Under the pieces are notes generated by a model. It was not told the origin of the DNA, made no database searches, and saw only the letters and a list, made by a program, of their open reading frames with translations. From NCBI GenBank assembly GCA_030248135.1, contig JASANC010004233.1, forward strand, positions 1 to 23,633: DNA of 23,633 nt, in the 5' to 3' direction. Positions 1-23,633 of this stretch are shown here, in pieces. The position numbers and the translations under genes were made by a program. Positions within the stretch are counted from its first letter, which is position 1; each line of letters starts with the position of its first letter. This stretch comes from Theristus sp. LFF4_11. Taxonomy: Eukaryota > Nematoda > Chromadorea > Monhysterida > Xyalidae.

Positions 1-702
1 AATTTTTAAAAGAAACTAGCCGCACGCTGGCGTTTGTACCCAGCTTTCGATTCTCTTTCATTTTTATTCCCTAAAAACACCATCAACATGGTTCATGATT
101 CATGATACCAGGCGTCGTATGGTCCACATAAAAAACATCTGTCTTTTTACGAATGATAATTTTTGAAAAACAGCCGTGGACAAGACGGCGGCCGCAATTA
201 TGAATGAACGCATCAAATTCATGTGCAACGGTTTTGAGCTAGTTCCTGACGAGAAAAAAGATGCCGTTTATGGAGGCGCGTCGTATTCGGCGGGATGGAT
301 AAACACCTGTCGCGAGCATGCAAAGTGAAATTCGGTATATCGCAGATTGATATTAGGCAAACTACAGTCGAACTGTATTATCTTTCTTTCGTTTTTGCGA
401 CACAAATGCGTTTGCTTTTTGCACGCAGGTAGAATTTCGCACCTGACGGGGCATTTCAAAATCGAACCGACCCGTGTGACCTGTGTAACGTGTTACTAAG
501 AGAAGAGTTTATAATTTTTTGTTTTAATTTTTTTTCAAAGTTAAATTTTAATTGACCAGGAATCGGTTTTAGTTTTTAAACCAAAACTTTCAAAAGTTTT
601 TAAAATGTTTTAAACTATAAAAATCAGTCAAAACTTTTCTTTGAACTTTTTTTTGAAAGAACATGCATTTGAGACACTTTCCGCAGAAATTCATGTGCTG
701 TG
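1..702. other. 3' flank and spacer of unit 1; no gene seen
   Basis: This is non-coding sequence equivalent to 8405-8576 joined to 9899-10451 in unit 2, so it lacks the transposon found there. It holds a poor open frame on the minus strand (268-459) that recurs at 10019-10204 only because the units are recent duplicates. AT-rich tracts occupy 500-660. Nothing here supports a gene. Confidence 0.6.
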
Positions 703-2477: not shown

Positions 2478-2530
2478 CTTGGCTTAGGATTAGGATTAGG
2501 TTTAGGATTAGGAATGATTAGGATTAGGAA
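2478..2530 (+). repeat. Short interstitial TTAGGA-type repeat
   Basis: Five to seven copies of TTAGGA/TTTAGG-like hexamers lie inside the left arm of the Foldback-like element. They resemble telomeric repeats of TTAGG or TTAGGG type but are imperfect, and the related sequence at 6157-6175 has only one or two copies. Local slippage is as likely as a telomeric origin. Confidence 0.6.
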
Positions 2531-2874
2531 ACACGACCTGTGGATCCACATGTCCAAATTTGGTTAGATGGGTAATTTTCATAGTTTAAGAATTGATGTA
2601 GGCTAATTTTAAGAATTAAAATGATTGAATTTGGCTCTGTGTCCAATGCAAAATTCGAACTCAGCGCGTCAATGCGGTTTGAAAAAGCTCCAATTTTTTG
2701 TCGACCTATCAGACATGTTGTTGTTATTGAAATTGAATGTGCAAAATCAATCGGAACAAAGCAATAAATAAAAACACGTCAACTGATTCATCGACGAAAT
2801 TCAAACTGAAGCATTTGTTCCAATGTCATGAACAAATAGAAGCGAAACAAGGACGAAAACTGAAAGAAAAAATT

Positions 2875-3475: not shown

Positions 3476-3724
3476 ATTCACCCTGCTGTTATGCAATACA
3501 CCTAAAAATATTACCCATGACACTTTAGCCGTACCAAAAAAACAAGCTGCTGAAAATTGCTCAGTTTCACATGTTGCACAACATTGAGGCCAAACCTCTT
3601 CTGCATATGATGTTGCCAAGGCCGAAATGCAGAGAACCATTCTACAATTTGGTTGATTAGTGAAAGTTTTATCTTTTGTTACATGCAGTTGAAATGTAAA
3701 AAACCAATACGATAAAAAAGCGTT

Positions 3725-4422
3725 CGCATAAAACTGCGTTTGCAAGTTGTTTGTTGTTCGCTTTGCACAATCACGGATGTAGCGCGAAACGCGCGCAGTG
3801 GCACAATCACGATGTAGCGCGTAAACTGCGCTGGCAACTTGCTTGTTGTTCGTCTTGCACAATCACGATGTAGCGCGTAAACTGCGCTTGCAAGTTGTTT
3901 GCTGTTCACATTGCACAATCACGATGTAGCGCGTAAACTGCGCCTGCAAGTTGTTCGCTGTTCGCTTTGCACAATTACGATGTAGCGCGTAAACTGCGCT
4001 GGCAACTTGCTTGTTGTTCGTCTTGCACAATCACGATGTAGCGCGTAAACTGCGCTTGCAAGTTGTTTGCTGTTCACATTGCACAATCACGATGTAGCGC
4101 GTAAACTGCGCCTGCAAGTTGTTCGCTGTTCGCTTTGCACAATTACGATGTAGCGCCTAAACTGCGCTGGCAACTTGCTTGTTGTTCGTCTTGCACAATC
4201 ACGATGTAGCGCGTAAACTGCGCTTGCAAGTTGTTTGCTGTTCACATTGCACAATCACGATGTATCGCGTAAATTGCGCTTGCAAGTTGTTTGCTGTTCG
4301 CTTTGCACAATCACGATGTAGCGCGTAAACTGCGCTTGCAAGTTGTTTGTTGTTCGCTTTGCACAATCACGATGTAGCGCGTAAACTGCGCTTGCAAGTT
4401 GTTTGTTGTTCACTTTGTTGGG
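3725..4422 (+). repeat. 56-bp minisatellite with three-unit higher-order repeat
   Basis: About 12 copies of a 56-bp monomer beginning GCACAATCACGATGTAGCGC. Clear starts at 3857, 3913, 3969 and 4025 give the exact period. Three monomer variants, distinguished by their last 15 bases (ending CGTCTT, CACATT or CGCTTT), recur in the same order, giving a 168-bp higher-order unit. Each monomer contains AGCGC...GCGCT, which can form a short hairpin. Open frames here are translations of the repeat. Confidence 0.9.
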
Positions 4423-5551
4423 GGTGCACTATTGTAGAAAAATTTCTGGGGGGTGCACACCCCCCACCCCACCCATGATATTTTTTCGCTTAAATTTTGA
4501 AGGGAAAACGCTAAATTTTGCGGCAAAATTACAATGAAGAATGTCAAGTTATCATATATTCAGCTTATATTATGGACTTTATAGACAAAAAAATCATGAT
4601 TTTTAAGCAAAAGTTCATGATTTTTGGATGGTCCGAGAAAATTTTTGGGGTTGTCATTGTAACTTAAGGTCCATGTGAGGGGGGGTGGGTGGGGTGTCAA
4701 GCAAATTTCGAAAGGAGTGTGGATGGTCCAGTGTTCAGGTTTTAAGGTTTGGTGTCGCGTGACCCCACCCCCCACGCGGAGGTCTCGGGTGCTCTATGGG
4801 GGGGGGTGTACGTACCCCCCCCCCACCCCCACGTCTTCGGTACTGAACCCGTGGGGCCTACTTTCAGACGTATGACTTTTTCATGCTCATGCAATATCAT
4901 GTGAACGGTATCCATCATAAATATCTATCAAGCACATAAATACAACTTTCAGTGCACTGTACACGCCCACCACAGACGCTTTTAATCAAAAATTTCAAAT
5001 TCAAATAACAAAAATTCTTCAAAATTTTGAATTTCAAAAAAACCCATACACAGGATTACCCAGCAGAACGAGGGCTTTCATATGAGCCATCAATCAGCGC
5101 GCTGCGATGAAGTTTGAGCGGACCCATATTTTGAAGGAGTACCGAAAAAAGGACGGACGGACAAACACGGCACAATGAGAAGATTAAGACAACACAGCCA
5201 CAGTCAAAAGATCGCGTAGTGACCGCACGCTAAATGAAAATGTCCGACTTTGTGTCCGATGTCCTACTCCTGTCCGCCGCGGTGTCCGGTCCCTGAACTC
5301 AAAGTTTCGGAAAAACGCTCGGGGCAAGACCCCGACGGGAGGGGTATAATTGCGGCCCTCTAAATGTGGCCTGAAAAGGCCTGAAGAGTTCCGGTCCGCT
5401 CATTATACTTTTGATACTTTTTTGTTGAATGAAAGTTGCGATATTTTTATTTGAAGCTTCATTTGATCAACGTTGCACAAAAAGCGTGCACGCATGCGCA
5501 TCTTTCTTCATTCGATGCGTATTTGAGTTGTTCTGTTGCGTTGCAACGAGA
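4423..5551. other. Core of Foldback-like element; no gene seen
   Basis: Unique sequence between the opposed 56-bp arrays. It contains G- and C-runs (4430-4480, 4675-4860), a GGACGGACGGAC stretch near 5150, and AT-rich filler. No open frame resembles a transposase or any known domain. Confidence 0.6.
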
Positions 5552-5724
5552 CGCTACATCGTGATTGTGCAAAGCGAACAACAAACAACTTGCAAGCGCA
5601 CTTTACGCGCTACATCGTGATTTTTTGTGCAAAGCGAACAACAAACAACTTGCAAGCGCAGTTTACGCGCTACATCGTGATTGTGCAAAGCGAACAACAA
5701 ACAACTTGCAAGCGCAGTTTTCGC
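5552..5724 (-). repeat. Inverted 56-bp minisatellite, right arm
   Basis: Three copies of the 56-bp monomer of 3725-4422 in reverse orientation, one with a short T-rich insertion near 5620. Together with the left array it continues the inverted symmetry of the element inward, although the copy number differs widely between the arms (about 12 against 3). Confidence 0.9.
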
Positions 5725-6300
5725 ACACACTGCTTGCGTGCACTGTGACTGTGTGTGTGCGCGCATGTACAGTATGCATGCGGCACATGTACCAAAAACG
5801 CATGCGACAAGCCATTTTGTTTTGTATCGTGTGACTCCCGGCGACGCTTTATAAAGCTGAAATTTTACATGGATATACATTTTTCATAGATCTTTCAGAA
5901 TTACTTAGCAACTATACCCCACAAACGTTTCTAAAGTACCGAAAAACGTAAAAAACCACCAACCTCTGCAGTTTTTTAAAAATACAAAGCATGAAAAAAC
6001 GTTTTCAACCCATAATATAGAAACAAAAAATGTGCGCGAGCACAAGGGAAATCGATTGGTGTTTGATTTTTGTTAATAGCTTCAAGCAGAAGCGAGCTAG
6101 AGCAGTTTTACTACAAAGAGATCGAAAATTAGGTTTTTCCTAATTTTGAAGCATAAAAAAGGCTTGGATTAGGATAAAAATATGATTTTCGAACTCAGGG
6201 CATCAAGGCGGTTCGATTGGTCTTAAATTTGACTGAATTTGAAAACTTTTTTGAAATTGTGCCTAAGGAGGGTCGGTATTGTGAAAAAGCCTATCTTAAG
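5725..6300. repeat. Right long inverted arm of Foldback-like element
   Basis: Reverse complement of about 2875-3475. The frames here (for example on the minus strand at 5554-5880) mirror those of the left arm and have no independent support as genes. Confidence 0.85.
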
Positions 6301-6404
6301 TATTTTTGTAAAAAGCATGTCGGTGAGCAGGGAGTACAATTTAGAGTGCGGTTTCAGTTCATTTTCGTTGTCCGTGGCGAAATACAGCGCAGAAAGATGA
6401 TTAT

Positions 6405-6567
6405 TGGGCTGGGCCGGTAATGGGCGGGCCGGAAATGAGTGGGCCGGAAATGAGTGGGCCGGGATTGTCGGGCCGGTAATGCGTGGGACGGTAATGCGTG
6501 GGCTGGTAATGGGTGGGCCGGAAATGTCGGGACGCTAATGCGTGGGCCGGAAATGCGTGGGCCGGAG
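6405..6567 (-). repeat. 15-bp minisatellite, right end of Foldback-like element
   Basis: About ten copies of GGGCCGGAAATGAGT-type units (variants GGTAATGCGTGGG and GGAAATGTCGGG). This is the inverted partner of 2130-2287. It ends at GACCCCGCACC just before the right copy of the 9-bp target duplication. Confidence 0.9.
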
Positions 6568-6589
6568 TTGACCCCGCACCAAGCCAAGC

Positions 6590-7832: not shown

Positions 7833-8335
7833 ATGAACATTGTCGGAACTGCGCTGTTCATTTTGGTGTCTGCAACGGTGGTTATGACAAGTCCACTACT
7901 GCACAATGAAGATGGTACGGTAAAGAAATACCAGCAAACAAATTTTCAAAAACTCTTTCTTCAAACAACAGTGGTAAACTCTTTTTAGGATTTGCCAATG
8001 ATTACCTGCCAATTGGTAAGTAAGAAAGTTTTATCATATTGTTTGAAATGCATTTGTTCATTTTGTTGACCTTGTATTTCTCAATAATTATTTCAGACAC
8101 AAACGCGACTGTTAAGGAACTGCGCGATATAGTGTGGATCCGTGAATGTCAGTTTTGGTTGCGAGTTCCGCCAGAAACACGTGATGTACTTCTACAATCT
8201 TTTCAAAATGCCACCGCCACTTCTATTATCATGTCTAAATGTGAAAGGAGGGCCGAAGCGGGCGAGTTCCCTCGTCTGCCGATGTTTGGTAACAATGTTT
8301 TCTTCAAAGATTTGGCTTTTGGCGCTTGCTTTTAA
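7833..8335 (+). CDS. P1: small secreted protein of tandem family (3 exons, 115 aa)
   Basis: Family not recognised. Proposed exons are 7833-7914, 7989-8015 and 8097-8335, with introns of 74 and 81 bp, both phase 1. The first intron uses G|GTACGG and a strong CTCTTTTTAG acceptor; the second uses GTAAGT...TTTCAG. Residues 1 to about 19 form a signal peptide (MNIVGTALFILVSATVVM), so the product should be secreted or lumenal. The mature part has NAT glycosylation sequons, a conserved LRVPPETRD block, and a nearly invariant C-terminal block ending FPRLPMFGNNVFF...DLAFGACF. Cysteines sit in ECQ, KCE and the final GACF. The N-terminal Cys of P2 and P3 (MTCP) is Ser here (MTSP). Read without intron 1, the frame hits TAG at 7986-7988, so the copy is intact only if spliced. 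Exon 3 differs from P2 at 20 codons, all replacements. The role is unknown; a defence, toxin-like or reproductive secreted protein would fit the pattern. Confidence 0.75.
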
Positions 8336-8576
8336 ACACCGTCTACACATCCAGAATTTTTGATTGAAAACTCAGCCATAAACTTTTTTTCTGGAGACAT
8401 TTCGAATTTTTAAAAGAACTAGCAAGCCAGCCGCAGGCTAGCAACTGTTTGTACTCAGCTTTCAATTCTCTTTCATTTTTATTTCCTATAAAAGTAAAAA
8501 CACCATCAATATTAGATTTCATGATACCAGTGCGTCGTATGGTTCATATAAAAAACATCTGTTTGTTTTTGTATAT
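8336..8576. other. 3' flank of P1
   Basis: Nearly identical to the 3' flanks of P2 and P3. A CATAAA near 8379 is the nearest thing to a polyadenylation signal; no canonical AATAAA is present close to the stop. Confidence 0.4.
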
Positions 8577-9898
8577 AGTCGCCCTGAATATTTTGTAGTA
8601 TTAGCTGATTGGTTGCCTAAACATCAGGTTTAAAAAAGAAATTAAATCCGTTTTTTTATTGCACTTTTTCGATTCACAACTTTCTTTGAAAGCAAATCAA
8701 AAGAAAGCAACTGTGTGATCCAGTCGAGCCTGACAAAACGCCTCAGAACAACAGAATGCCTCAAAGTAAGTGGAATCAAAAAAGGAAATGACATGAAAAT
8801 GTCCGGTTTTTAAGTGAATTGTTGACACAACTGAGAAAAAAAGTCAACCGAAACAAACACTCGAACACTACAACACAGTCGCGATACGACTAACAAAACA
8901 AAACCGACTCTGACAGTCAGACTGAAACTGAAAACTGTTGATTGAAAAAACTAAGACAAAATAAAATTGGTTGAGTTACGAGTTCGTCGAATCGCTGGTT
9001 TACGAATAACCACATCGTATGAAGTCACGAATAACCACACCATAGCTGTCGCAGCACACGTACACAAAGCGAATCACTGACGGGCACAAGCACACAAACG
9101 AAGCAAAATCAAGTAAGCGGCTGTCACAATGTCGACCGTTTGGGGCAAGTTGTATGGAACTATCGAGATGAAAAATTAGATAATTCTTTTTTCTAACTTT
9201 GTGTTTTCTGTGCGTTTGTTTTGTGTGGATGCACAAAAAGTGAGATTTTGATGGAAAAAAATCTTGTTTGTAATATATGAGATGAAGACATCAAAAGCAG
9301 CTGTTTTCATGGCAAAAAAACTTTACTTTGTTACAAAAAAGAACGACGGCGACGACGACAATTGGAAACCTAAATTCGCTGTCAAATATTAGCTGCTTTT
9401 AATTTTTTTGATCAAGAAAAACGCTTTGGAGGATTTGGGTGACGTACATTTTGTAAAAAAGCAGACGTGTTTTGCTGTCAAATTCCTTTTTTCAGTAACA
9501 ACGACGGCGACGGCGACGACGTTCGTTGTTCTTTTTTGGCAAATTGACATTTCGTTTTAAAATTGTTTCTTTGGAATTATAATTTCTGTTTTAACTTCAA
9601 GTTTAAATTTAGAGCGACAATTTCTGCAGCATAGTTTTTTCCGAAGGGAAACGTCGTCGTTGTCAGTTATCGTTATTTTTTCGAACAAGTTAACGTTTCT
9701 TTACTGTAAAACTTGCTGCTTTTGATTTGTCTGCAACTCACAAATCATGAACAAGATTTTTCCATTAAAAATCTCACTGTTTGCTAGCGCAAAATAAACG
9801 CACAGAAATCATAATATTCAGAAAAAAGAAAAATTTCTTTTTTGAACCTGATGTTTAGGCAACCAATCAGCTAATACCACAAAGTATCGAGGGCGACT
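8577..9898. mobile_element. Long-terminal-inverted-repeat DNA element, non-autonomous
   Basis: The ends AGTCGCCCT...AGGGCGACT are inverted over about 65 bp, including the tract GTATTAGCTGATTGGTTGCC on one side and its complement on the other. Weaker inverted similarity continues inward: 9182-9400 matches the complement of about 9600-9830 (shared AACTTTGTGTTTTCTGTGCG-like and TCAAAAGCAGC tracts). Unit 1 lacks the element at this point, which supports insertion. A clean target duplication was not found, though TGTAT occurs near both ends. No transposase frame is present. Confidence 0.7.
8644..9181. mobile_element. Extra 0.54-kb segment inside the left arm, probably nested
   Basis: The copy of the same element at 22601-22966 runs directly from the equivalent of 8643 to the equivalent of about 9182, and the element's own right arm also lacks this stretch. 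An insertion into the left arm is the simplest reading. It includes a repeated ACGAATAACCACA motif (9003-9045) but no clear inverted ends or genes. Confidence 0.5.
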
Positions 9899-10451
9899 GT
9901 ACTGTATGATAATTTTAAAAAAAGGTGTGGACAAGACGGCGGACGCAATTATGAATGAACGCATCAAACTCTTATGCAACGATTTTGAGCTAGTTCCTGA
10001 CGAGAAAAAAGACGCCGTTTATGGAGGCGCGTCGCATTCGGCGGAATGGAGAAACCGCTGTCGCGCGCATGCAAAGTGAAATTCGGTATACCGCAGATTG
10101 ATATTAGGCAAACTACAGTGTATTGTCTTTCTTTCGTTTTTGCGACACAAATGCGTTTGCTTTCTGCACGCAGGTAGAATTTCGCACCTGACGGGGCATT
10201 TCAAAATCGAACCGACCCGTGTGACCTGTGTAACGTGTTACTAAGAGAAGAGTTTAAAATTTTTTGTTTTAATTTTTTTTTCAAAGTTAAATTTTGATTG
10301 ACCAGGAATCGGTTTTAGTTTTTTAAAAACCAAAACTTTCAAAAGTTTTTAAAATGTTTTAAACTATAAAAATCAGTCAAAACTTTTCTTTGAACTTTTT
10401 TTTGAAAGAACATGCATTTGAGACACTTTCCGCAGAAATTCATGTGCTGTG
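9899..10451. other. Unit spacer (unit 2); no gene seen
   Basis: Continues the 3' flank of unit 1 (equivalent to about 160-702). AT-rich, with no coding support. Confidence 0.6.
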
Positions 10452-10672
10452 TATTATCTTTTCGTGTGAAGGAGGCGGAGTAATGTTGAATGATGTGTGG
10501 AAAAGACGCACAGCTGAAAAAATGTTTCGCGCCAGAGCGCAGAACGAATATGAATTGAAATAAATTTTGTTTAGTGAGAAAAGGTTCTGACTAGTTTTTT
10601 ATCAATTTTTTGCACAATTATGTCGTCAGAATACGTTAAGTTTTGCTGATTTCAAATTGCCGCGCAGCCATG
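10452..10672 (-). mobile_element. MITE-like copy, inverted and truncated (unit 2)
   Basis: The same element copy as 703-927, inherited through unit duplication. It faces the dimeric insert at 12354-12845 in the opposite orientation, so each unit of this type has a potential 2-kb inverted pair. Confidence 0.6.
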
Positions 10673-12353
10673 ATTTTGCTCAAGTGTGTGTCGATTTTTG
10701 ATCCCAGTGGGCGACTTTTCCACAAGAAAATTACAAAGACAAAACAATAAAACCAAAAGAGAAAATATGATGCTGCAACACTTATTGAATCGAAAGAAAA
10801 AGCAAACAAAGCGGAAAACTTGCAAAAGGATATCGAATGTGTCAGCGATTGTATACCCGGGATGAATAATTTCGAAAATTGAGTTCACGTAATTGGAACT
10901 TTCAAACGATTTTTTATACACACAATCAATGCCAAACATTTCTCAATCAATGTTACAATCTTCAGACCAAAGCATTAATTAAAAAGCAGACTCGAGAACA
11001 AGCCGTTTAGCCCATTTGTAGTTTTTTTGGCAAAAACCCTGTAATGTTGCAGTGCAGGTACACAAGCGCCAATTTCCAACAGTCCATTTTTTCTGATGTA
11101 TCCGAAGAAACCATTGCATGCAGAAAAATAATGCGCGTGCAGATACACATGTAGATGCACTTGTTTGTGCACTAATTCATGCAGATGCACAAACCCGTGC
11201 ACTGATCTATTCAGATTACTCTTCAGAAGATTTCAGAAGCAAAAAAACGGCTGCATCTGAATTGTTGTATCCATAAGAAATAAGGCCTGTTACAGATTTT
11301 GTTCGGCGGGTTTTCAAAACTTTAATTTACAAAAACTTGGGAAGTTCACAGAGGTTCGGTTTGCGTGTGACCTTGTCATTTTCAATTGCGTGGCTTTTCC
11401 AGCGCCGCGCCGTGCGTGCAAACTGCAAGCCATTCAACATTTTGGTTAGCTTTTGTGAAAGAGGTCGGGTTGGTCTTTGGGCATGTTTGGAGTTTTCGTT
11501 TGATTGCAATGTTAAGTGATACCGTGCAGTTCACAGTTGTTTTTGGACATTTGGGAGGGTTTTTTGATACGATTTTAATCGATTAAAATCTGGTTGTACC
11601 ATCAGTTGCTTTTCGTATCGTGTGGTAAACGTGTGATTTCCGGTATTTCTTAAGTCACTTTTGCGAAAGGACAAGTCAAGTCACTGGTGTGCAAAAACAA
11701 CATCGACGATGCTTGCGGGCTACATTATTCACCCGAAATAAGCTTCAGAGCGTTGTGAATTACAGTTGGTTTGGTTGGTCGACAGTCATTGTCCACTAAA
11801 TCCTTTGTTCTTCAGAAAGCCTCCTCGTGATACTAAGCCAAGCCTATTCCTAACGTATTCCTTACATGACTATAATCTGGTGAAAATGTGAAACATCTGT
11901 AAATTGTGGCTCCTTCTTTCAATAGGGTGAATTATGCAGCTTTTGACGATCGAGGACAAACATTTTAAAAAATAACGCCCGAAGGATTGGTTGCTTTGAA
12001 TCTAAAACATTCTTCCGCTGTGTGTGACCTGAAAGACGGAGTTTTTATTGATAGCGATAAAGCACTTTTATTTGAAGTCTCGATCCACACCACACAAGCT
12101 AAATAATCAAAAAATTCATGTTTACCTACCCTGTAAATTACGAAACGTGGTTACGATTATGAGTAAGCGAGAGATTAATCGAAATCCACACGAATGCAAA
12201 AATTAACAAATATGGGTGTAACATAGTATTGACATCGAATTTGTAAGTGAAAATGTCTGCCCCGACAAATATAGTATGTTCAATATGAGCCCAAATCAAA
12301 CGGCCGCGCGCAAACAAGCACTGTGCAAGAATTCAGGGGTAATTCACCCACTA
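10673..12353. other. Conserved unit spacer (unit 2); no gene seen
   Basis: Matches units 1 and 3. It includes the uninterrupted AAGCCAAGC site (about 11834-11842) that is occupied in unit 1. Minus-strand frames here (10652-10939, 10975-11202) overlap segments similar to unit 3 but differ by frame-breaking indels, so they are not called. Confidence 0.6.
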
Positions 12354-12845
12354 TATTATCTTTCTTATTAAACGTGACCCAATATGCGTTTGCACGCACA
12401 GATAGAGAAAATGTTTCATGGCTGCGCGGCAATTTGAAATCAGCAAAACTTTACCTGTTTTGACGGCAGATTTGTGCAAGATATCTAGAAAAAAAAACAA
12501 TCAATTTTTTTCTCACAAAGTAAATTTATTTTATTTCATATATACTCACAAATAAAAAGATAATATTATCTTTTTTATTAAACGTGACTCAATATGCGTC
12601 TGCACGCATAGATAGAGAAAATGTTTCATGGCTGCGCGGCAATTTAAAATCAGCAAAACTTAACGTATTCTGACGACAATTTGTACAAGAAATTGAGAAA
12701 AAAAACAGTCAGAATCTTTTCTCACCAAACAAATTTTTTTTTAATTCATATTCGTTCTGCGTTCTGGCGGAAAACTGTTTCAGCTGTGGGGCTTTTCCAC
12801 ACATCATTCAACATTACTCCGCCTCCTTCGCACGAAAAGATAATA
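12354..12845. mobile_element. Dimeric MITE-like insert (unit 2)
   Basis: Two head-to-tail copies, about 12354-12562 and 12563-12845. Each opens with TTATCTTT and closes with AAAGATAATA, so the ends are inverted, and the two share AAACGTGACYCAATATGCG near the start and TTTCATGGCTGCGCGGCAAT further in. The second copy is longer at its 3' side. Unit 1 lacks the insert: there GGGGTAATT runs almost straight into GTTCATGAGGTAACGG. Confidence 0.65.
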
Positions 12846-13198
12846 CCAGGGTTTGTTTCGTTCATGCGGTAACGGTTTGGTCCACCCACTACATTGCTTA
12901 CAGAAAATCATATTCCACCCACATCCGTCTGTCATCAAATATGTTCAAATCATTTTTGTTTCGCGGTCGTTTTTCTCTGTTCCGTAGCTAAAAATAGCAC
13001 ACAAAAAGCTTTAACCCACGTTCAACCTGTGCGTCAACAAAGTAGTTAGAGATCTGCACAAGCTCATCTTCAGTCGACCGCCATTGTCTCGCATTCGCAA
13101 AAATTGCACATCCACAGCTACAAAGCTTGAACTTGCTAGTCAAACCAAAAGAAGTGGCCTGAAAAAACCAAACAGAAAAAAGTTCAAGCGCAACAAAC
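12846..13198 (+). promoter_or_regulatory. Upstream region of P2
   Basis: Contains CTAAAAATAG at 12988-12997, an exact match to the MEF2 consensus CTA(A/T)4TAG, and a TCAGTC initiator-like motif (A at 13072) 127 bp before the ATG. No TATA box sits at the expected spacing. The motif matches are short and could be chance. Confidence 0.35.
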
Positions 13199-13722
13199 AT
13201 GAACATTGTCGGAACTGCGTTGTTCATTTTGGTGTCTGCAGCGGTGGTTATGACATGTCCACTACCGCACAATGAAGATGGTACGGTAAAAAAAATACCA
13301 GCAAACAAGTTTTCAAAAACTCTTTCTTCAAACAACAGTGGTAACCTCTTTTTAGGATTTGCCAATGATTACCTGCCAATTGGTAAGTAAGAAAGTTTTA
13401 TCATAGCATATCATTTGTTCATTTTGTTGACCTGTATTTCTCAATGTTTATTTCAGACACAAACGCGACTGTTGGGGAACTGCAACAAATACTGAAACTC
13501 CGTAATTGTCAGTTGTTGGTGCGAGTTCCGTCAGAAACACGTGATGAATTTCTACAATCTTTTCCAAATACCACCGCCATTTCTATTTCAATATCTAAAT
13601 GTGAAAAGAGGGCCGAAGCGGGCGAGTTCCCTCGTCTGCCGATGTTTGGTAACAATGTTTTCTTCAACGATTTGGCTTTTGCGCTTGCTTTTAAACACCG
13701 TCTACACACCCAGAATTTTTGA
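13199..13722 (+). CDS. P2: small secreted protein of tandem family (3 exons, 124 aa)
   Basis: Exons 13199-13280, 13356-13382 and 13457-13722, with introns of 75 and 74 bp, both phase 1. The signal peptide is followed by Cys in MTCPLPHNEDG. Exon 3 encodes TNATV, a conserved NCQ cysteine, VRVPSETRDEF, an NTT sequon, KCEKRAEAGEF and RLPMFGNNVFFNDLAF. Two oddities set it apart. First, a G is missing after 13680 relative to P1 and P3, which shifts the end of the frame, replaces the usual GACF with ALAFKHRLHTQNF, and removes the last cysteine. Second, intron 1 has eight As where the others have seven. It is 75 bp, free of stops and divisible by three, so retention would simply add 25 residues. Function unknown. 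Confidence 0.75.
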
Positions 13723-13955
13723 TTGAAAACTCAGCCATAAACTTTTTTCTGGAGACATTTCCAATTTTTAAAAAATCGCCCGCCGGGGTTTGCCCTTGCT
13801 CTTCCTCCAAAACACCCTCAACATTAGAGTTTTGTTAGATACCCGGGTGGGTGGCTGGGCCACAAAAAAAATCTGTCTGTATATATGTTGATAAATATTT
13901 TGAAAACAGGGGGGGACGACGGCGGGGGCGCGATTTTTGAAACCCACAACCACTA
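13723..13955. other. 3' flank of P2, degraded or misread from 13768
   Basis: Up to about 13767 this matches the other flanks. From there to about 13945 the order of landmarks is kept (AACACCCTCAACATTAGA, GATACC, CCACA...AAAAATCTGT, GACGGCGG), but many bases have become G or C, in contrast with the clean identity on both sides. No gene seen. Confidence 0.5.
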
Positions 13956-14114
13956 CCTTTCCCCCTTACCCCCCACCCAATAAACCCCCCCCCCAAAAAC
14001 CCCCCCCCCCCGGTTCCCACCCCCCCCCAAACCCCGGGGGTGGGTTACCTAACAAAATGAGGGGGTTGGGGGTGAGCGCGCGATGTAAAGTTATCAAGGA
14101 GGGGGGGGTCCCCG

Positions 14115-14145
<31 letters not shown>

Positions 14146-14182
14146 AATAAACCCCCATGGGGGTTTATTAGAGGTAATACGG
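13956..14182. mobile_element. Second poly-C-rich element, opposite orientation
   Basis: The right end is GGTAATACGG followed by TA, the reverse complement of the left end of the element at 6958. The interior is again long C and G runs, including an unbroken C tract of about 32 bases near 14115-14143. The left end is not clear. Unit 2 lacks the insert between CATCAAACTCTTA and TGCAACG. A proline-rich frame here (13937-14311) is simply translated poly-C. Confidence 0.55.
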
Positions 14183-14184
14183 TA

Positions 14185-16501
14185 TGCAACGATTTTGAGT
14201 CAGTTCCTGACGAGAAAAAAGACGCCGTTTATGGAGGAGCGTCGAAATCGGCGGGATGGAGAAACAGCTGTCGCGCGCCTGCAAAGTGAAATTCGGTATA
14301 TCGCAGTTTGATATTAGGCAAACTACAGTCGAACTGTATTATCTTTCTTTTGTTTTTGCGACACAAATGCGTTTGCTTTTGCACGTAATTAGGTGTGACA
14401 AAATTTCAAAATCAAACCAACCCGTGTGACCTGTTGAACGTGTTACTCAGAGCAGAGTTTAAAAATTTTTGTTTCAATATACAATGTAACTAAAAAAATC
14501 AATCAAAACTGTTCTTTCTTTTAAAAGAAAATGCACATGATACACTTTCCGCAGAAAGTCATGCACGATATGTCAAAAGTTTATTTCAACACTCAAAAAA
14601 TGAGACGCACAGCAAACAATTTCAAGTCAAAGTTAAAAGTCAAATAAATTCACGCTTTTTTGTGTAAAGCCGACCAGAACTCCTGCAAATCCAAAAGCCT
14701 GCTAAATTTATTTATCAAAAATAGCAGAAATTATTTGTTCTCACTTGGTTTAACCTATTCCGAGCTTGTAAAAGACTAGAATTGTATCAAATGACAGAAG
14801 TTTCGCAAAAAAGCAAAAGCTTCTGTTTTTTTTTTCTGCTCATGTGTGTGTCGATTTTTGATCCCAGTGGGCGACTTTTCTACAAGAAAATTACAAATAC
14901 AAAATGATGCAACCAAAAAATGATGCTGCACTGCAACACTTATTGAATCGAAAGAAAAAGCAAACAAAACGGAAAACTCGCAAACGAACATCAAATGTGT
15001 CAGCGATTGTATACCCGGAATGAATTTTAAAGTTTGAGTTCACGTAATTGGAACTTTCAAACGACTTTTATACACATAATCAATGCCAAACATTTCTCAA
15101 TCAATGTTACAATTTTCAGACCAAAGCACTAATTAAAAAGCAGACTCGAGAACAAGCCGTTCAGCCCATTTGTAGTTTTTTGCAAAAACCCTGTAATGTT
15201 GCAGTGCAGGTGCACCAGTGCCAATTTTGCAGCAGTCCATTTTTTTATCTATCCGAGGAAACCACCGGAATGCAGAAAAATAATGCGCGTGCAAATACAC
15301 ATGTAGATGCACATGTTTGTGCACTAATTGATGCAGATGCACAAACCCGTGCACTGATCTATTCAGATTACTCTTCAGAAGATTTCAGAAGCAAAAAACG
15401 GCTGCATCTGAATTGTTGTATCCATAAGAAATAAGGCCTGTTACAGATTTTGTTCGGCGGGTTTTCAAAACTTTAATTTACAAAAACTTGGGAAGTTCAC
15501 AATATTTTAAACTCATTCAGAGGTTCGGTTTGCGTGTGACCTTGTCATTCCGTACGTGCAAACTGCAAGCCATTCAACATTTTGGTTAGCTTTTGTGAAT
15601 TTAAAGAGTTCGGGTTGGTCTTTGGGCATGTTTGGAGTTTTCGTTTGATTGCAATGTTAAGTGATACCGTGCAGTTCACAGTTGTTTTTGGACATTTGGG
15701 AGGGTTTTTTGATACGATTTTAATCGATTAAAATCTGGTTGTACCATCAGTTGCTTTTCGTATCGTGTGGTAAACGTGTGATTTCCGGTATTTCTTAAGT
15801 CACTTTTGCGAAAGGACAAGTCAAGTCACTGGTGTGCAAAAACAACATCGACGATGCTTGCGGGCTACATTATTCACCCGAAATGAGCTTCAGAGCGTTG
15901 TGAATTACAGTTGGTTTGGTTGGTCGACAGTCATTGTCCACTAAATCCTTTGTTCTTCAGAAAGCCTCCTCGTGATACTAAGCCAAGCCTATTCCTAACG
16001 TATTCCTTACATGTGTATAATCTGGTGAAAATGTGAAACATCTGTTAATGGTGGCTCCTTCTTTCAATGGGGTGAATTATGCAGCTTTTGACGATCGAGG
16101 ACAAACATTTTGAAAAATAACGCCCGAAGGGTTGGTTGCTTTGAATCTAAAACATTCTTCCGCTGTGTGTGACCTGAAAGACGGAGTTTTTATTGATAGC
16201 GATAAAGTACTTTTATTTTTCCAGAGAACTTTTATTTGAAGTCTCGATACACACCACACAAGCTAAATAATCAAAAAATTCATGTTTAACTGTAAATTAC
16301 GAAACGTGGTTACAATTATGAGTAAGCGAGAGATTAATCGAAATCCACACGAATGCAAAAATTAACAAATATGGGTGTAACATCGAATTTGTAAGTGAAA
16401 ATGTCTGCCCCGACAAATATAGTATGTTCAATATGAGCCCAAATCAAACGGCCGCGCGCAAACAAGCACTGTGCAAGAATTCAGGGGTAATTCACCCACT
16501 A
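14185..16501. other. Conserved unit spacer (unit 3); no gene supported
   Basis: Matches units 1 and 2 except for a divergent stretch at 14450-14830. A 128-codon frame (15048-15434) is the longest in the spacer. The same DNA in units 1 and 2 is interrupted by stops or indels, and the translation is rich in biased residues, so it is not called as a gene. An empty site for the unit 1 Foldback insertion lies at about 15980-15988. Confidence 0.55.
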
Positions 16502-16991
16502 TATTATCTTTCTTATTAAACGTGACCCAATATGCGTTTGCACGCACAGATAGAGAAAATGTTTCATGGCTGCGCGGCAATTTGAAATCAGCAAAACTTT
16601 ACCTGTTTTGACGGCAGATTTGTGCAAGATACTTAGAAAAAAAAGAATCAGATTTTTTCTCACAAAGTAAATTTATTTTATTTCATATATACTCACAAAT
16701 AAAAAGATAATATTATCTTTCTTATTAAACGTGACTCAATATGCGTTTGCACGCGTAGATGGAGAAAATGTTTCATGGCTGCGCGGCAATTTAAAATCAG
16801 CAAAACTTAACGTATTCTGACGACAATTTGTACAAGAAATTGAGAAAAAAACAGTCAGAACCTTTTCTCACCAAACAAAATTTATATTAATTCATATTCG
16901 TTCTGCGTTCTGGCGCAAAACTGTTTCAGCTGTGGGGCTTTTCCACACATCATTCAACATTACTCCGCCTCCTTCGCACGAAAAGATAATA
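16502..16991. mobile_element. Dimeric MITE-like insert (unit 3)
   Basis: Same insertion as 12354-12845, with the internal AAAAGATAATATTATCTTT junction at about 16703-16720. Sharing of site and dimer structure shows units 2 and 3 descend from one copy that already had it. Confidence 0.65.
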
Positions 16992-17334
16992 CCAGGGTTT
17001 GTTTTGATCATGCGGTAACGGTTTGGTTGCTTACAGAAAATCATATTCCACCCACATCCGTCTGTCATCAAATATGTTCAAATCATTTTTGTTTCGCGGT
17101 CGTTTTTCTCTGTTCCGTAGCTAAAAATAGCACACAAAAAGCTTTAACCCACGTTCAACCTGTGCGTCAACAAAGTAGTTAGAGATCTGCACAAGCTCAT
17201 CTTCAGTCGACCGTCATTGTCTCGCATTCGCTAAAATCTGCACATCCACAGCCACAAAGCTGGAACTTGCCAGTCAAACCAAAAAAAGTGGTCTGAAAAA
17301 AAATCAAACAGAAAAAAGTTCAAGCACAACAACA
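16992..17334 (+). promoter_or_regulatory. Upstream region of P3
   Basis: MEF2-like CTAAAAATAG at 17121-17130 and a TCAGTC initiator-like motif (A at 17205) 130 bp before the ATG. A small deletion near 17028 removes the TCCACCCACTACAT segment present in units 1 and 2. Confidence 0.35.
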
Positions 17335-20300
17335 ATGAACATTGTCGGAACTGCGCTGTTCATTTTGGTGTCTGCAGCGGTGGTTATGACATGTCCACTA
17401 CCGCACAATGAAGATGGTACGGTAAAAAAATACCAGCAAACAAGTTTTCAAAAACTCTTTCTTCAAACAACAGTGGTAAACTCTTTTTAGGATTTGCCAA
17501 TGATTACGTGCCACTTGGGGGTAAGTAAGAAAGTTTTATCATATCATATCATTTGTTTAAATCAATGCTCTTAAATGCTCTCAAATGCAAATTTACTGCA
17601 ACATTTGACTGTTTCAAATGTCCAAAAAAAACATTTGATCCGATTAAAAGCGTCGAACATCGTGAATTGGTTCGTTGACATTTGAAATGTCTCAAATGTA
17701 GTTTAAATGGTCAGAACGCGCAATTGCATTTTATATGTGCATATAACCGGTTTTTAATGCGGGAAAATCATGCGGATGCGCGAGCGAGCGAAGCGAGCGG
17801 ACAGCGCATCACGCATTATATGGCTGGACATGGACCTGCGCGAGTTTTCAAAATTTACGCGTTGTCCTACAGCAACGAACATACATGCTGGAAACTTGTT
17901 ACTGTGCACACGAAGAGACCTGCAGTGGTTGCTAACTGTGCCGAAGAGAAAATTCCATCAGACTTCTTTACGTCCGTTGTAGACACGAAAAACCTATTCT
18001 GAAATCTTGGTTACTTATTCTTGTTTCTCCTTTTTTTTCAGCTATATCATCAAGATGTGTTCGCACTTTCAATTTTTAACTGGGGCATTTTCATAGCCGA
18101 ACAAAAATGTTTCCTGGGGTAATTTCATCCGGAGATTTTGCAAATTGGGTTAATTTTTTACCCAGACCTTGTTTTTGGGTAAAAAATTGGGCATTTTTAA
18201 AAGTTCGCAGGGTTTTCACCAGTTTTAAGTGTTCGCCCTTTCCATTTTTGTCTACAGTGGTTTCATAACCGAATAAAATACTTTCCTAGGGTAATTTCAT
18301 CCGTAGATTTTGAAAATCCGATTACTTTTTTGCCCCGACCTTTCTTTTGGGTAAAAAACTGGCATTTTCAAAAGTTCGGAGGTTTTGACCTAGTTTCAAA
18401 TGTCGCCCTTTCATTTTTTGTCTGAAATTGTTTCATAACCGAACAAAAAAGTTTCCTGGGGTAATTTCAGCTGTAGATTTTAAAAATCCGGTTACTTTTT
18501 TGCCCCGACCCTTTTGGGGTTAAAAATTGGGCAATTTTTGTCTAAAGGTGTTTCGTAATCGAACAAAATGGTTTTCTTGGGTATTTTAATCCGTAGATTT
18601 TAAAAATCCAATTACTTTTTTTGCCCCGACCTTTTTTGGGTAAAAAATTGGGCATTTTTAAAAGTTCGGGGGTTTTGACCTAGTTTCAAATGTCGCCCTT
18701 TCAATTTTTGTCTGAAATTGTTTCATAACCGAACAAAAAAGTTTCCTGGGGTAATTTCAGCTGTGGATATTGAAAATCGGGTTACTTTTTTGCCCCGACC
18801 TTTTTTGGGTAAAAAATTGGGCAATTTTTGTCTAAAGTTGTTTTACAACTGAACAAAACAGTTTCCTGGGTAATTTCATCCGTAGATTTTAAAAATCCAA
18901 TTATTTTTTTGCCCCGACCTTTTTTGGGTAAAAAATTGGGCATTTTCAAAAGTTCGGAGGTTTTGACCTAGTTTCAAATGTCGCCCTTTCAATTTTTGTC
19001 TGAAATTGTTTCATAACCGAACAAAAAAGTTTCCTGGGGTAATTTCAGCTGTAGATATTGAAAATCCGGTTACTTTTTTGCCCCGACCCTTTTTGGGTTA
19101 AAAATTGGGCAATTTTTGTCTAAAGTTTTTTCATAATCGAACAAAATGGTTTTCTTGGGTAATTTCATCCCTAGATTTTGAAAATCCAATTACTTTTTTG
19201 CCCCGACCTTTTTTGGGTAGAAAATTGGGCATTTTCAAAAGTTCGGAGGTTTTGACCTAGTTTCAATTGTCGCCCTTTCAAATTTTGTCTGAAATTGTTT
19301 CATAACCGAACAAAAAAGTTTCCTGGGGTAATTTCAGCTGTAGATTTTGAAAATCCGGTTACTTTTTTGCCCCGACCCTTTTTGGGTAAAAAATTGGGCA
19401 TAACCGAACAAAAAAGTTTCCTGGGGTAATTTCAGCTGTAGATATTGAAAATCGGGTTACTTTTTTGCCCCGACCTTTTTTGGGTTAAAAATATTTGGGC
19501 AGTTTTTGTCTAAAGCTGTTTTACAACCAAACAAAACAGTTTCCTGGATAATTTCATCCGTAGATTTTAAAAATCCAATTACTTTTTTGCCCCGATGTTT
19601 TTTGGGTTAAAAATTGGGCATTTTCAAAAGTTCGGAGGTTTTGACCTAGTTTCAAATGTCGCCCTTTCAATTTTTGTCTGAAATTGTTTCATAACCGAAC
19701 AAAAAAGTTTCCTGGGGTAATTTCAGCTGTAGATTTTAAAAATCCAATTACTTTTTTGCTTCGACCCTTTTTAGGTTAAAAATTAGGCATAACCGAACAA
19801 ATAAGTTTCCTGGGGTAATTTCAGCTGTAGATATTGAAAATCCGGTTACTTTTTTGCCCCGATCTTTTTTGGGTTAAAAATTGGGCAATTTTTTTCTAAA
19901 GTTGTTTCAGAACCGAACAAAAAAGTTTCCTGGGGTAATTTCAGCTGTAGATTTTGAAAATCCGGTTACTTTTTTGCCCCGACCCTTTTTTGGTTAAAAA
20001 TTACGCATAACCGAACAAAAAAAGTTTTCTGGGGTAATTTCAGCTGTAGATATTGAAAATCCGGTTACTTTTTTTTTTGCCCGACCTTTTTGGGTTAAAA
20101 ATTGGGCAATTTTTGTCTAAAGTTGTTTCATAACCGAACAAAATGGTTTCCTATGGTAGTTTCATCCGTAGATTTTAAAAATCCAATTACTTTTTTGCTC
20201 CGACCTTTTTTGGGCAAAAAATCGCGCATTTTCAAAAGTTTGCAGGTTTTGACCTGGTTACAAACGTCGCCCTTTCAATTTTTGTCTGAAATTGTTTCAT

Positions 20301-22357
20301 AACCAAACAAACAGTTTCCTGAGGTAATTTCATCCGTAGATTTTGAAAATCCGGTTATTTTTTACCCCGACCCTTTTTGGGTTAAAAATTGGGCAATTTT
20401 TGTCTAAAGTTGTTTTACAACCGAACAAAACAGTTTCCTGGGCAATTTCATCCGTAGATTTTAAAAATCCAACTACTTTTTCTTCCGGCCCTTTTTGGGC
20501 AAAAAGTTGGGCATTTTCAAATGTTCGGAGTTTTAGCCTGGTTTCAAATGTCGCCCTTTCAATTTTTGTCTGAAATTGGCTCATAACCGACCAAAAATGT
20601 TTCCTGGGGTAATTTCATATATAGATTTTGAAATTATAATTAGTTTTTTGCCCCAACCCAACCCCAGCGCCACCCCAACCTGTGTTGTTGCCGAATGTAA
20701 AGTTCAGAAGAATGTGTGCCCAACGAATTGTGAATTTGGTCCGACCTTCGGGGCTTATGTAAAAGTCAGAATATTATCTAAAAATGCGGGAGACGCATAT
20801 AAAAGGAGGAATATGGCTTTGTGTAAGCAGTGAAAGACTTGGCTCGACAACGCTTTTCAAGCCTCTGATGTGGTACACACGGATACAAGTACATAAGAGC
20901 CATATTTTTGCGCCGTTTATTCATTATTTCGGTTGCACATGGCAACCCTCGTACTCGTACATTGTAGACAAATGAAACTTTCACATTTGCGGTATTTCGG
21001 GCATTTAGCGAGCGACCACTAAAGCTAAAACCACTAAAATAACAATCAGACTTTAGATCGCTGACACTGGTTTGCCCAGGACAAAGTGTATCGCAGAGGC
21101 ATTGGTTTACTCAATGTGCCTTTCTGTGGCAAAGGCAATGGCTCACGGGACGGACGGTTTAGCCTACATTCATACTCCCACGCAAATCAACAAGAGTTTG
21201 GTAAAAAATGGTGAAAATTAACGGAAGACAACACCTTTTCGTCACTGGTGCTGGTGTATACACAGCGGTGCGTACACTACGTTAGCAACGATAATGCTAC
21301 ATGCAGCAGTGTTTTGCAATCGCAGTCTCTGATTGTTGTGTTTTTGCACAGAGTTACAGAATTTCGCTCGAGAATTTCAAACTAAACTGGAGAGGACAAT
21401 TATAAAATAATTTTAAAGCTTTTTTCGCTTTTCAGCAAAACAAACGCGGCACAAAAATATTACTCTTGTGTACTTGTATCCGTGTGTACCACATCAGAGG
21501 CTTGAAAAGCGTTGTCGAGCCAAGTCTTTCACTGCTTACACAAAGCCATATTCCTCCTTTTATATGCGTCTCCCGCATTTTTAGATAATTTATTCAAATG
21601 TTTAGTGCTAGCTGTTCTGTTCAAGTGTTGAGGAAATGTAGTTTCACGTTTTTTTACGACTGTCACAGTGACCGCAGGTGGACCCACGAACGCTCAAAGG
21701 AAAACTGACGCTGCCAATGACGCATAAAACGAAACGAAACGTAATACAAAACATAACAGACCGTGCCTCGATGCAGCATATCGACACAGGCGCATTTGAG
21801 AGCATTTGAATTACAAAATGCGGAGATTAAATGCGTGAACATTTAATCGATCAACTGCGATGGCAGTTTTTGGACCTTTTTAATGTACCCCTCAAATGTT
21901 TCTTGATGTGGTATTATAGGTTTCAGAGGCACTTAAATGTTTCTTGATGTGGTATTATAGGTTTTAAATGTTTCTTGATGTTGGCAACATTTAAGAGCAT
22001 TTGAGAGCATTTAAGAGCATTTAAATTTCTGTTTCTCCTGTGTAAGTAAGAAAGTTTTTTTCATATATCATATCATTTGTTCATTTTGTTGACCTGTATT
22101 TCTCAATAATTATTTCAGACCCAAACGCGCCTGCTGACGAACTGCTGTACATAGCGCGGTTACATGACTGTCAGTTATGGCTGCGAGTTCCACCAGAAAC
22201 ACGTGATGAATTTCAACAACCTTTTCGAAATACTACCGCCAGTTCTATGTTCATGTCTGAATGTGAAGGGAGGGCCGAAACGGGCGAGTTCAGTCGTCTG
22301 CCGATGTTTGGTAACAATGTTTTCTTCAACGATTTGGCTTTTGGCGCTTGCTTTTAA
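17335..22357 (+). CDS. P3: small secreted protein of tandem family (3 exons, 116 aa; 4.6-kb intron)
   Basis: Exons 17335-17416, 17491-17520 and 22119-22357. Intron 1 is 74 bp. Intron 2 is 4598 bp because of a 4.5-kb mobile insertion. Exon 1 differs from P2 by a single silent change. The microexon is 30 nt rather than 27: the extra three bases keep the frame and add a Gly (VPLGD in place of LPID), which supports the three-exon model. Exon 3 is open throughout and has PNAPADEL, HDCQLWLRVPPETRDEF, an NTT sequon, SECEGRAETGEF and the ancestral-looking DLAFGACF end. Four cysteines are present, including MTCP. Exon 3 differs from P1 at 26 replacement codons against 2 silent. The long intron may lower expression or be harmless. 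Function unknown. Confidence 0.65.
17682..18002 (+). CDS. 106-codon ORF in the intronic element, unknown
   Basis: The frame starts at ATG 17682 and ends at TGA 18000-18002. It lies between the left subterminal repeats and the satellite array. The first part covers repeat sequence and a GAGCGAGCGAAGCGAGCGG low-complexity stretch; the second half (about residues 55-106) has balanced composition with Cys in HTCWKL and ANCAEE. I recognise no family. It could be a remnant of the element's own gene or chance. Confidence 0.2.
   Translation: MKCLKCSLNGQNAQLHFICAYNRFLMRENHADARASEASGQRITHYMAGHGPARVFKIYALSYSNEHTCWKLVTVHTKRPAVVANCAEEKIPSDFFTSVVDTKNLF
18080..20660. repeat. Satellite array within the intronic element
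   Basis: About 19 units, each marked by GTAATTTCATCCGTAGATTT or GTAATTTCAGCTGTAG and by CTTTTTTGCCCCGACC. Three unit lengths occur: about 170 bp (with a TTCGGAGGTTTTGACCTAG block), about 120 bp (without it), and about 95-100 bp (shorter still). The long and 120-bp units alternate over much of 18290-19330, a dimeric higher-order pattern of about 290 bp; short units appear only in the right half. Open frames are repeat translations. Confidence 0.9.
20576..20772 (+). other. Non-repeat segment with a Cys-rich frame
   Basis: The satellite decays at about 20660 and a frame reading TPTCVVAECKVQKNVC then PTNCEFGPTFGAY runs on toward the nested element. The four closely spaced cysteines and balanced composition look like a fragment of an extracellular Cys-rich protein, and CCCCAG just before could be an acceptor. 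It is short and no family is recognised, so this may be a captured exon or chance. Confidence 0.2.
20773..21589. mobile_element. 817-bp element with about 125-bp near-perfect inverted ends
   Basis: 20773-20897 (ATTATCTAAAAATGCGGGAG...GGATACAAGTACA) recurs as its complement at about 21466-21589, with no mismatch noticed. Weaker symmetry extends some 30 bp further in. The 0.57-kb middle has no convincing gene. No clear target duplication was found. This is either a non-autonomous transposon or a local inverted duplication. Confidence 0.7.
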
Positions 22358-22966: not shown

Positions 22967-23084
22967 AAGAAAATGGTTAAGGGAAATGGATGGAAAGTTT
23001 GGTGGGGCGGTGGGAAATGAAGGTGGAGTGAGAGAAAAAGAAAAGTTAGTCAGCTGGCCGAAGCGGCCGGTGCGGTGGGGCCGC
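22967..23084. other. Purine-rich junction sequence
   Basis: A G/A-rich stretch (AAAGAAAATGG...GGTGGAGTGAGAGAAAAAG) between the truncated element and the retrotransposon remnant. It has no match elsewhere in the window. Purine-rich tracts are typical just before the 3' LTR of retrotransposons, but no LTR was identified. Confidence 0.4.
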
Positions 23085-23633
23085 TGATTCGAACAGATAG
23101 TCAGCAAAGAGACTCGCTGGAATACGCTCAACGAACTCCACATCTTCCGGTGACAACGTTGGACGACTATGCGCCGAAGTGATACGGTTGATTGTGTAAG
23201 CATCAATCACCATCGATGTCTTTTCTTTTGTCTGCAAGGTCAGCGACACGGTCTCCACTTTGACCGAGTTGGCACGAACGCTGTTGAATGTTGAGACAGA
23301 CAATGTTTATTCCGTGTTGACGGGCAAACCAAGTTGTTTCCAAAAACGCTTCGTGATGAACGAGTTTTCGCTTCCACAGTCAAGTTAAACTTTGGCCGAA
23401 ATAGTTCGCTCCGGGTGCTTAGGGGAGACGTTGCGTTTGCAATCATCAGGATACCACGCCTTAGTGGCGTGTTGCGAACATGTGCGCGTGACGCCGTACC
23501 TTCTTTTATTGACGCTGTGTCAGAACACGCATCGAGTTGATCCAACCCGACAATGGCTCCCGCAGGGGATGCCACAAATATGTGTTGATTTTTTTTCAAT
23601 TCATTTAACGTTTCACTTGCCACTGCAACTTGA
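23085..23633 (-). pseudogene. BEL/Pao-type retrotransposon polyprotein remnant (protease region)
   Basis: Read on the minus strand, one frame gives a Cys/His cluster (C-S-Q-H...D-D-C, about 23430-23480). It then gives LDCGSENSFITKRFWKQLGL (about 23381-23325), which has the shape of the aspartic-protease start of BEL/Pao elements (family motif D-S/T-G followed by S-x-x-S-F-I). Downstream residues FVERIPASLFAD agree with that region. The active-site triad reads D-C-G rather than D-S-G. In-frame TAA codons at 23387-23385 and 23309-23307 break the frame, so the copy is dead. The rest of the polyprotein is not visible: one side runs off the window and the other ends near 23085. Confidence 0.65.

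What the first reader, a model, noticed from the sequence alone, without database searches (positions are those of the whole stretch)
8097..22357. Secreted tandem family whose main exon changes almost only at replacement sites
Counting exon 3 by hand, P1 against P2 has 20 differing codons and all change the amino acid. P1 against P3 has 26 replacement and 2 silent; P2 against P3 about 24 and 4. Exon 1, both introns and the 3' flank are only a few percent different or less, so the coding exon diverges faster than its introns. Changes concentrate between the microexon and the AExGEF block, while the Cys residues, the NxT sequon and the C-terminal block stay. This is the classical sign of diversifying selection, seen in venom, antimicrobial, immune and gamete-recognition proteins.
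Basis: partly seen in the sequence, partly recalled or inferred. Interest (0 to 1): 0.9.

Follow-up and report, generated by a model that had tools for sequence, protein, structure and literature searches.

The report
Orphan secreted proteins remodelled between copies
In this animal genome, likely a nematode's, a small tandem gene family for which my searches found no relative in any other organism has predicted exons whose differences between copies almost all change the protein while the introns stay nearly identical, so the predicted secreted, two-domain proteins are likely being remodelled by natural selection at a surface that binds some fast-changing partner.

Summary
Another copy, Q2 (probably the gene just upstream), gives the cleanest pair: P2/Q2 differ at 0 of 260 intron sites but at 12 replacement and 1 silent codons of exon 3. 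Codon models give dN/dS 2.7 (p 0.012), and 3.85 when codons may differ in overall rate (p 0.0028; 0 of 162 simulations).

The gene model probably changes. Exon 4 repeats the pattern: P0/P1 10 replacement, 1 silent, 3' flank 1.3%. Exons 3 and 4 look like one duplicated three-helix domain (0 of 300 shuffles).

No homologue, Pfam family or confident fold match was found. The genome is probably a nematode's. Function is inferred: secreted binders of a fast-evolving partner. Known evolutionary mode; new orphan family.

The parts
174..328 (+). Exon 4 of the upstream gene P0 (exons 1-3 lie off the window; probably those of Q2 on contig C2540, whose end overlaps window 3-82 at 97.5%)
   Evidence: tblastn and splice-site reading; contig overlap
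7833..7914 (+). P1 exon 1, signal-peptide-like leader
7989..8015 (+). P1 exon 2, 27-nt microexon, flanked by phase-1 introns
8097..8288 (+). P1 exon 3, first helical domain (Cys at codons 17 and 48); hypervariable part is about codons 1-50 (8099-8248)
   Evidence: donor TTTG|GTAACA
8289..8335 (+).
   Evidence: for intron: likeness ends at the donor in paralogue C2540:12321-12154, and a 1-nt deletion in P2/Q2 lies here; against: C940 resembles it
9925..10079 (+). P1 exon 4 with stop, second helical domain (Cys at codons 18 and 46); predicted P1 product 151 aa
13199..13280 (+). P2 exon 1
13356..13382 (+). P2 exon 2 (microexon)
13457..13648 (+). P2 exon 3
14185..14289 (+). Surviving 3' part of P2 exon 4; its 5' part is interrupted by GC-rich inserted sequence, so P2 may be damaged
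17335..17416 (+). P3 exon 1
17491..17520 (+). P3 exon 2 (30-nt microexon)
17521..22118 (+). P3 intron 2, 4.6 kb, enlarged by inserted repeats
22119..22310 (+). P3 exon 3; its exon 4 was not found and may lie beyond the end of the window

Best explanation
This is a tandem family of predicted four-exon genes whose likely secreted proteins carry two copies of what is probably the same small helical, two-cysteine domain, and whose copies differ chiefly by amino-acid changes in those predicted domain exons, most likely because positive selection keeps altering a binding surface. Shown: the replacement bias in exon 3 and, for the one full pair available, in exon 4; near-identical introns; no homologue in the databases searched. 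Shown if the splicing is right: four cysteines kept in three diverged paralogues. Predicted: splicing, signal peptide, three-helix fold of each domain. Inferred: tandem duplication makes copies; each copy's domain surface is then driven away from its sisters by an antagonist or partner that also changes (host, prey, microbe or mate), while the disulphide-held core stays; exchange between copies may keep leader, introns and flanks alike. My commitment within this is an outward-facing effector or binder in an arms race.
For: Exon 3, codons 1-63, four copies: replacement/silent codons 19/0, 16/1, 25/2, 12/1, 24/4, 23/2 over the six pairs (not independent), with introns 0-4.6% diverged; replacement rate above intron rate in all six pairs, p 1e-4 to 8e-10. 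One-ratio model dN/dS 2.73, p 0.012; M2a over M1a 26.0, p 2e-6 (0 of 24 simulations reached it); when codons may differ in overall rate, dN/dS 3.85, p 0.0028, 0 of 162 simulations. Exon 4, P0/P1: 10 replacement, 1 silent, 3' flank 5/395, p 3e-5. Exon 4 also found behind exon 3 at two diverged loci, with AG acceptors in phase 1. Cys 54, 85, 118, 146 invariant in an alignment of three paralogues. Exon 3 against exon 4 profile: 0 of 300 full shuffles and 0 of 300 Cys-kept shuffles reach the score; both predicted as three helices at matching places. In helix 1 the variable positions lie on one face, p 0.005 weighted, 0.038 unweighted, uncorrected.
Against: P2/P3 has dN/dS 1.15. Silent sites in exon 3 also exceed introns in four of six pairs, which selection on proteins alone does not give. 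C940 still resembles the tail beyond the proposed donor, so an isoform ending there is not excluded. hhalign's own probability for the domain repeat is only 19%, and one Cys-kept shuffle came close (19.9 against 20.4). Helices 2 and 3 show no variable face (p 0.6-0.9), and variable positions of the two domains coincide only weakly (7 of 9, p 0.09). P2 exon 4 is interrupted; its comparisons (7/2 and 5/1) show no excess over their flank (p 0.98 and 1; that flank is 18-19% different). C940 and C2351 read differently at the end of exon 4. Only four close copies; no transcripts; secretion and role untested; species unknown.
Confidence: 0.5

Rival explanations
1. Segment exchange or long-kept old lineages: the exon 3 segment is simply older than its flanks, because gene conversion has homogenised leader, introns and flanks, or because short segments were imported from unsampled donors; selection only preserves the diversity.
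For: Silent sites of exon 3 exceed introns in P1/P3, P2/Q2, P2/P3 and Q2/P3 (p 0.031, 0.0036, 0.0002, 0.0039). P3 is P2-like in exon 1 and intron 1 but P1-like at the start of intron 3. A model with 31% of codons 14 times faster in overall rate fits better than the pure site-class model M2a (lnL -511.3 against -514.1).
Against: No donor found: the nine exon-3 matches in the genome (a lower bound by the tool's warning) fall at six loci. In exon 3 the two-against-two sites mostly agree with one tree (5 against 1 and 1). dN/dS stays 3.85 when rate differences are allowed.
Confidence: 0.3
2. Same selection, other role: gamete, seminal or kin-recognition proteins rather than arms-race effectors.
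For: A small hypervariable peptide serves kin recognition in the nematode Pristionchus (PMC10721034, passages seen). Nothing here excludes such a role.
Against: The two haplotypes of P1 differ little: 2 of 456 coding sites against 5 of 2492 non-coding, and P3 at 1 site of exon 3, whereas recognition loci are expected to be polymorphic (my inference).
Confidence: 0.25
3. A local mutation hotspot without selection.
For: Fast codons carry silent changes too; a neutral two-rate model alone gains 26.8 over the uniform neutral model.
Against: dN/dS of 1 is rejected within the two-rate model (p 0.0028). The two haplotypes show no excess change in the first 144 bases of exon 3: 1 for P1, 0 for P3. Transition/transversion make-up is about 1:1, like that of the non-coding sites.
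Confidence: 0.1
4. Decaying pseudogenes, or an open frame that is not a gene.
For: P2 exon 4 is interrupted; several loci on C2351 show only exons 1-2; the diverged C2540 locus has a stop in its exon-1-like sequence (by eye).
Against: No indel in exon 3 coding sequence among four copies with 13-28 changed codons per pair, while introns gain indels. Replacement excess is not expected of decay. Phase-1 splice sites are kept in diverged loci.
Confidence: 0.07

Closest known systems
Snake venom toxin gene families with accelerated exon evolution (phospholipase A2, three-finger toxins)
   Same: Coding regions diverge faster than introns and UTRs, replacement changes exceed silent ones (PMC2711939, passages seen). 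That leader and disulphide core are kept is recalled.
   Different: No sequence match in the PDB set and no confident fold match; here two exons coding a repeated helical domain; no gland or toxicity evidence.
HYP effectors of potato cyst nematodes
   Same: Nematode, secretion signal, conserved regions around a hypervariable one (PMC11228951 abstract; PMC4177990 passages).
   Different: HYP varies by number and order of tandem motifs, at single-gene loci; here length is fixed and change is by substitution among tandem genes.
SELF-1 kin-recognition peptide of Pristionchus
   Same: Small peptide with a hypervariable part, a second copy in one strain, nematode (PMC10721034 passages).
   Different: Hypervariable C-terminus there; here two internal domain exons. 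Sequences were not compared.
SpTransformer (Sp185/333) genes of sea urchin
   Same: Small clustered two-exon genes with the diversity in the second exon (PMC5491942, listing with start of abstract; PMC8634487, passages).
   Different: There repeats and a mosaic of elements; here substitutions in a predicted folded domain, length fixed in the four close copies.

Membership tests
Gene family under diversifying selection (accelerated exons) | dN/dS above 1 over the coding segment | tested here: met
   One-ratio 2.73, p 0.012; 3.85 with rate differences, p 0.0028
Gene family under diversifying selection (accelerated exons) | Coding exon more diverged than its introns | tested here: met
   All six pairs, p 1e-4 or lower
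Gene family under diversifying selection (accelerated exons) | Silent divergence in the exon equals that of the introns | tested here: not met
   Silent excess in four of six pairs; points to a second process
Secreted cysteine-stabilised protein | N-terminal signal peptide | tested here: inconclusive
   Hydrophobic leader by eye; no predictor available
Secreted cysteine-stabilised protein | Even, conserved set of cysteines | tested here: met
   Four invariant Cys in three diverged paralogues, given the predicted splicing; P3, P2 and Q2 have a further Cys at residue 20 near the leader end; pairing not tested
Venom toxin family | Similarity to a known toxin family | tested here: inconclusive
   No Pfam, NCBIfam or PDB sequence match
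Venom toxin family | Expression in a venom or secretory gland | not testable with these tools
   No transcripts held
HYP effectors | Central domain of variable tandem motifs | tested here: not met
   Exon 3 coding part is the same length in P1, P2, Q2, P3; no tandem motif seen in it by eye
Nematode origin of the genome | Transthyretin-like family PF01060 present | tested here: met
   8 matches from 20 candidates, best 3.8e-13; that the family is nematode-specific is recalled
Nematode origin of the genome | SL1 spliced leader | tested here: inconclusive
   No match to the 22-nt leader with up to 1 mismatch (letters recalled); the Rfam SL1 search rang nowhere and scored 50 of 43697 candidates

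The most novel reading that the evidence does not exclude
An unknown two-domain recognition or effector repertoire, confined to one nematode lineage, in which diversification is held to the domain exons while leader, introns and flanks are kept uniform by exchange between tandem copies, so that a new binder can be made from a shared chassis: P2 and Q2 carry 12 changed residues in exon 3 with no change in 260 intron sites.
Probability: 0.25. Interest if true: 0.75.

Novelty: new member of a known kind. Interest (0 to 1): 0.55.

Why it matters
Copies that share introns but not surfaces are a natural record of what selection changes in a small protein. This family gives two such exons in one predicted gene, a duplicated domain with no known relative, and a pair (P2/Q2) whose introns have not begun to differ. 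If transcribed, it would mark a point of conflict or recognition between this animal and something else, and let one ask whether gene conversion helps to build such repertoires.

Tried and rejected

Species: COX1 and pectate lyase found nothing; the latter's control genomes were silent too. Tubulin did not discriminate. A retroelement-like open frame found no homologue. Two literature searches and passages of one paper (PMC10879605) did not name the species.

Literature searches (listings) brought nothing relevant.

Limits: the M1a simulation reached 24 and the two-rate simulation 162 of 400 planned each, stopped by time. Helix-face tests were eight (four helices, two weightings), uncorrected. 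In one search, P2 exon 4 positions were pooled with P0/P1. The contigs C2351 and C940 were read but for 441 and 3317 bases. The first codon of exon 4 takes its first base from the assumed splice with exon 3; for P0 that exon 3 is off the window.

Full report
1. The observation. Nei-Gojobori dN/dS is 3.60, 1.59 and 1.09, so the raw ratios alone are not uniformly strong. Introns and the upstream 300 bases are less diverged.

2. More copies. The window is contig C2693 of a 159.4-Mb genome in 3744 contigs. Exon 3 has nine matches there, the same nine with a near and with a distant query (a lower bound by the tool's warning): P1, P2, P3; P1a and P3a on C2665, which matches the window at 99.6% over 5.2 kb and which I take for the other haplotype; Q2 on C2540; a diverged locus on C2540 (12321-12154, minus); and a diverged locus on C940, with a 97% copy on C2351 that I take for its other haplotype. 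Exon 1 has ten matches, several without a detectable exon 3. The end of C2540 matches window 3-82 at 97.5% over 80 bases, and Q2 runs towards that end, so Q2 is probably the gene P0 whose exon 4 opens the window. The array would then read Q2/P0, P1, P2, P3 in one direction. This join is inferred.

3. The gene model. Downstream of exon 3 lies a second coding piece, seen first by eye and then by tblastn: window 174-328 (P0), 9925-10079 (P1), the C2665 allele, C940, C2351 and, diverged, C2540. It is entered after an AG in phase 1, and exon 3 leaves in phase 1 at TTTG|GTAACA. P1 then codes 151 residues with a stop. In the diverged C2540 locus, likeness to exon 3 ends just at that donor, and the 1-nt deletion shared by P2 and Q2 lies beyond it. 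Against this, the C940 locus still resembles the block (GNSIFHADF), so an isoform that ends there is not excluded. Splicing is predicted, not shown. P2's exon 4 is interrupted by GC-rich sequence. For P3 and for Q2 no exon 4 was found on their own contigs; both genes run to a contig end. C940 and C2351 read differently near the end of exon 4. In P1, intron 3 is 1636 bases and holds a repeat.

4. Two like domains. Profiles of exon 3 (six rows) and exon 4 (five rows, one an allele) align over 44 columns with both cysteines and the VP turn in register; hhalign gives E 0.0013 but a probability of only 19%. None of 300 column shuffles reaches the score, nor any of 300 that keep the cysteines in place, although the best of those comes close (19.9 against 20.4). 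Predicted models both have three helices at like places (domain 1: 5-21, 25-32, 38-53, pLDDT 78, three sequences; domain 2: 4-23, 26-33, 36-50, pLDDT 86, two sequences). Three diverged products keep four cysteines.

5. Selection. With exon 3 cut at the donor (63 codons), replacement/silent codons are 19/0, 16/1, 25/2, 12/1, 24/4 and 23/2 for P1/P2, P1/Q2, P1/P3, P2/Q2, P2/P3, Q2/P3; intron divergence is 11/259, 11/259, 12/267, 0/260, 6/259, 6/259. P2/Q2 is the telling pair: no intron change, one change in exon 1, 5 of 293 upstream, yet 12 changed residues. A one-ratio codon model gives 2.73 (p 0.012); a class of positively selected sites is preferred (p 2e-6; 0 of 24 simulations). The fairer null lets codons differ in overall rate: dN/dS is still 3.85 (p 0.0028; 0 of 162 simulations). 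Exon 4 repeats the pattern in the one full pair: P0/P1 10 replacement, 1 silent, against 5/395 in the 3' flank, p 3e-5; the P2 comparisons there (7/2 and 5/1) show no excess over a flank that is itself 18-19% different.

6. What selection does not explain. Silent changes in exon 3 exceed the introns in four of six pairs. Part of this is the counting of multi-hit codons: purely silent codons are 2, 1, 4 and 2 in P1/P3, P2/Q2, P2/P3 and Q2/P3. But with P3 the segment looks older than its flanks. P3 resembles P2 in exon 1 and P1 at the start of intron 3, so exchange between copies is likely. The two haplotypes show no clear excess in exon 3, and the mutation make-up is ordinary, which speaks against hypermutation.

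7. Surface. In helix 1 of domain 1 the variable positions favour one face (p 0.005 weighted by number of residues seen, 0.038 unweighted, uncorrected for eight tests), 105 to 138 degrees from the direction of the hydrophobic moment; helices 2 and 3 show nothing. Variable places in the two domains coincide at 7 of 9, p 0.09. This is weak support for a binding face.

8. Whose genome. A full eukaryotic 18S is on C1730; PF01060, which I recall as nematode-specific, has 8 matches. From memory the 18S reads like a nematode's. The canonical SL1 leader was not found. Nematode is likely; the species and its way of life are unknown, so a parasite role cannot be argued from the host.

9. Function. No homologue, family or confident fold match was found. 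The leader, the conserved cysteines, a kept N-glycosylation sequon in the four close copies and replacement-biased change fit a secreted binder whose partner also changes. I commit to an outward-facing effector or binder; reproductive or kin-recognition roles remain open.

10. Novelty. The mode, exons outrunning introns, is documented for snake venom families (PMC2711939, passages). The family and its duplicated domain are new to the databases searched here. Hence: new member of a known kind.

Noticed in passing
window 2110-6589: A 4.5-kb insertion with long inverted arms (2918-3461 and 5722-6265, 96% complementary) and a 56-bp tandem array inside; AAGCCAAGC stands at both ends and once at the uninterrupted site 11835-11843 between P1 and P2.
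   Followed up: partly
window about 8578-9900: A repeat with inverted ends (AGCTGATTGGTTGCC...) inside P1 intron 3; P3 has its start at the same place from about 22600, so the insertion may predate that duplication (by eye).
   Followed up: partly
window about 17557-22040: P3 intron 2 holds an insertion with AAATGCTCTTAAATGC-like inverted ends (by eye) and many repeats at about 290-base spacing; pieces of it also lie downstream of Q2 on C2540.
   Followed up: partly
window 13900-14180; C2351 1855-2310; C2665 17523-17974: A GC-rich mobile-looking repeat with TACCGTATTACC-like ends (by eye) recurs near these genes and interrupts P2 exon 4.
   Followed up: no
C2351 2524, 8416, 13509 (minus) and 19402 (plus): Four further exon-1 copies, with promoter-like likeness; for the three on the minus strand no exon 3 was found in the stretches read. 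They may be remnants or lead to unrecognised exons.
   Followed up: partly
C2540 about 13800-13410 (minus): The diverged C2540 locus has two microexon-like pieces (GSANKDAPI, SAEDVPI) between its leader and exon 3, suggesting microexon duplication; its leader frame meets a stop (by eye).
   Followed up: no
window 23046-23306 (minus): An open frame resembling, from memory, a BEL/Pao retroelement peptidase region; Pfam gave no match above cut-off.
   Followed up: no
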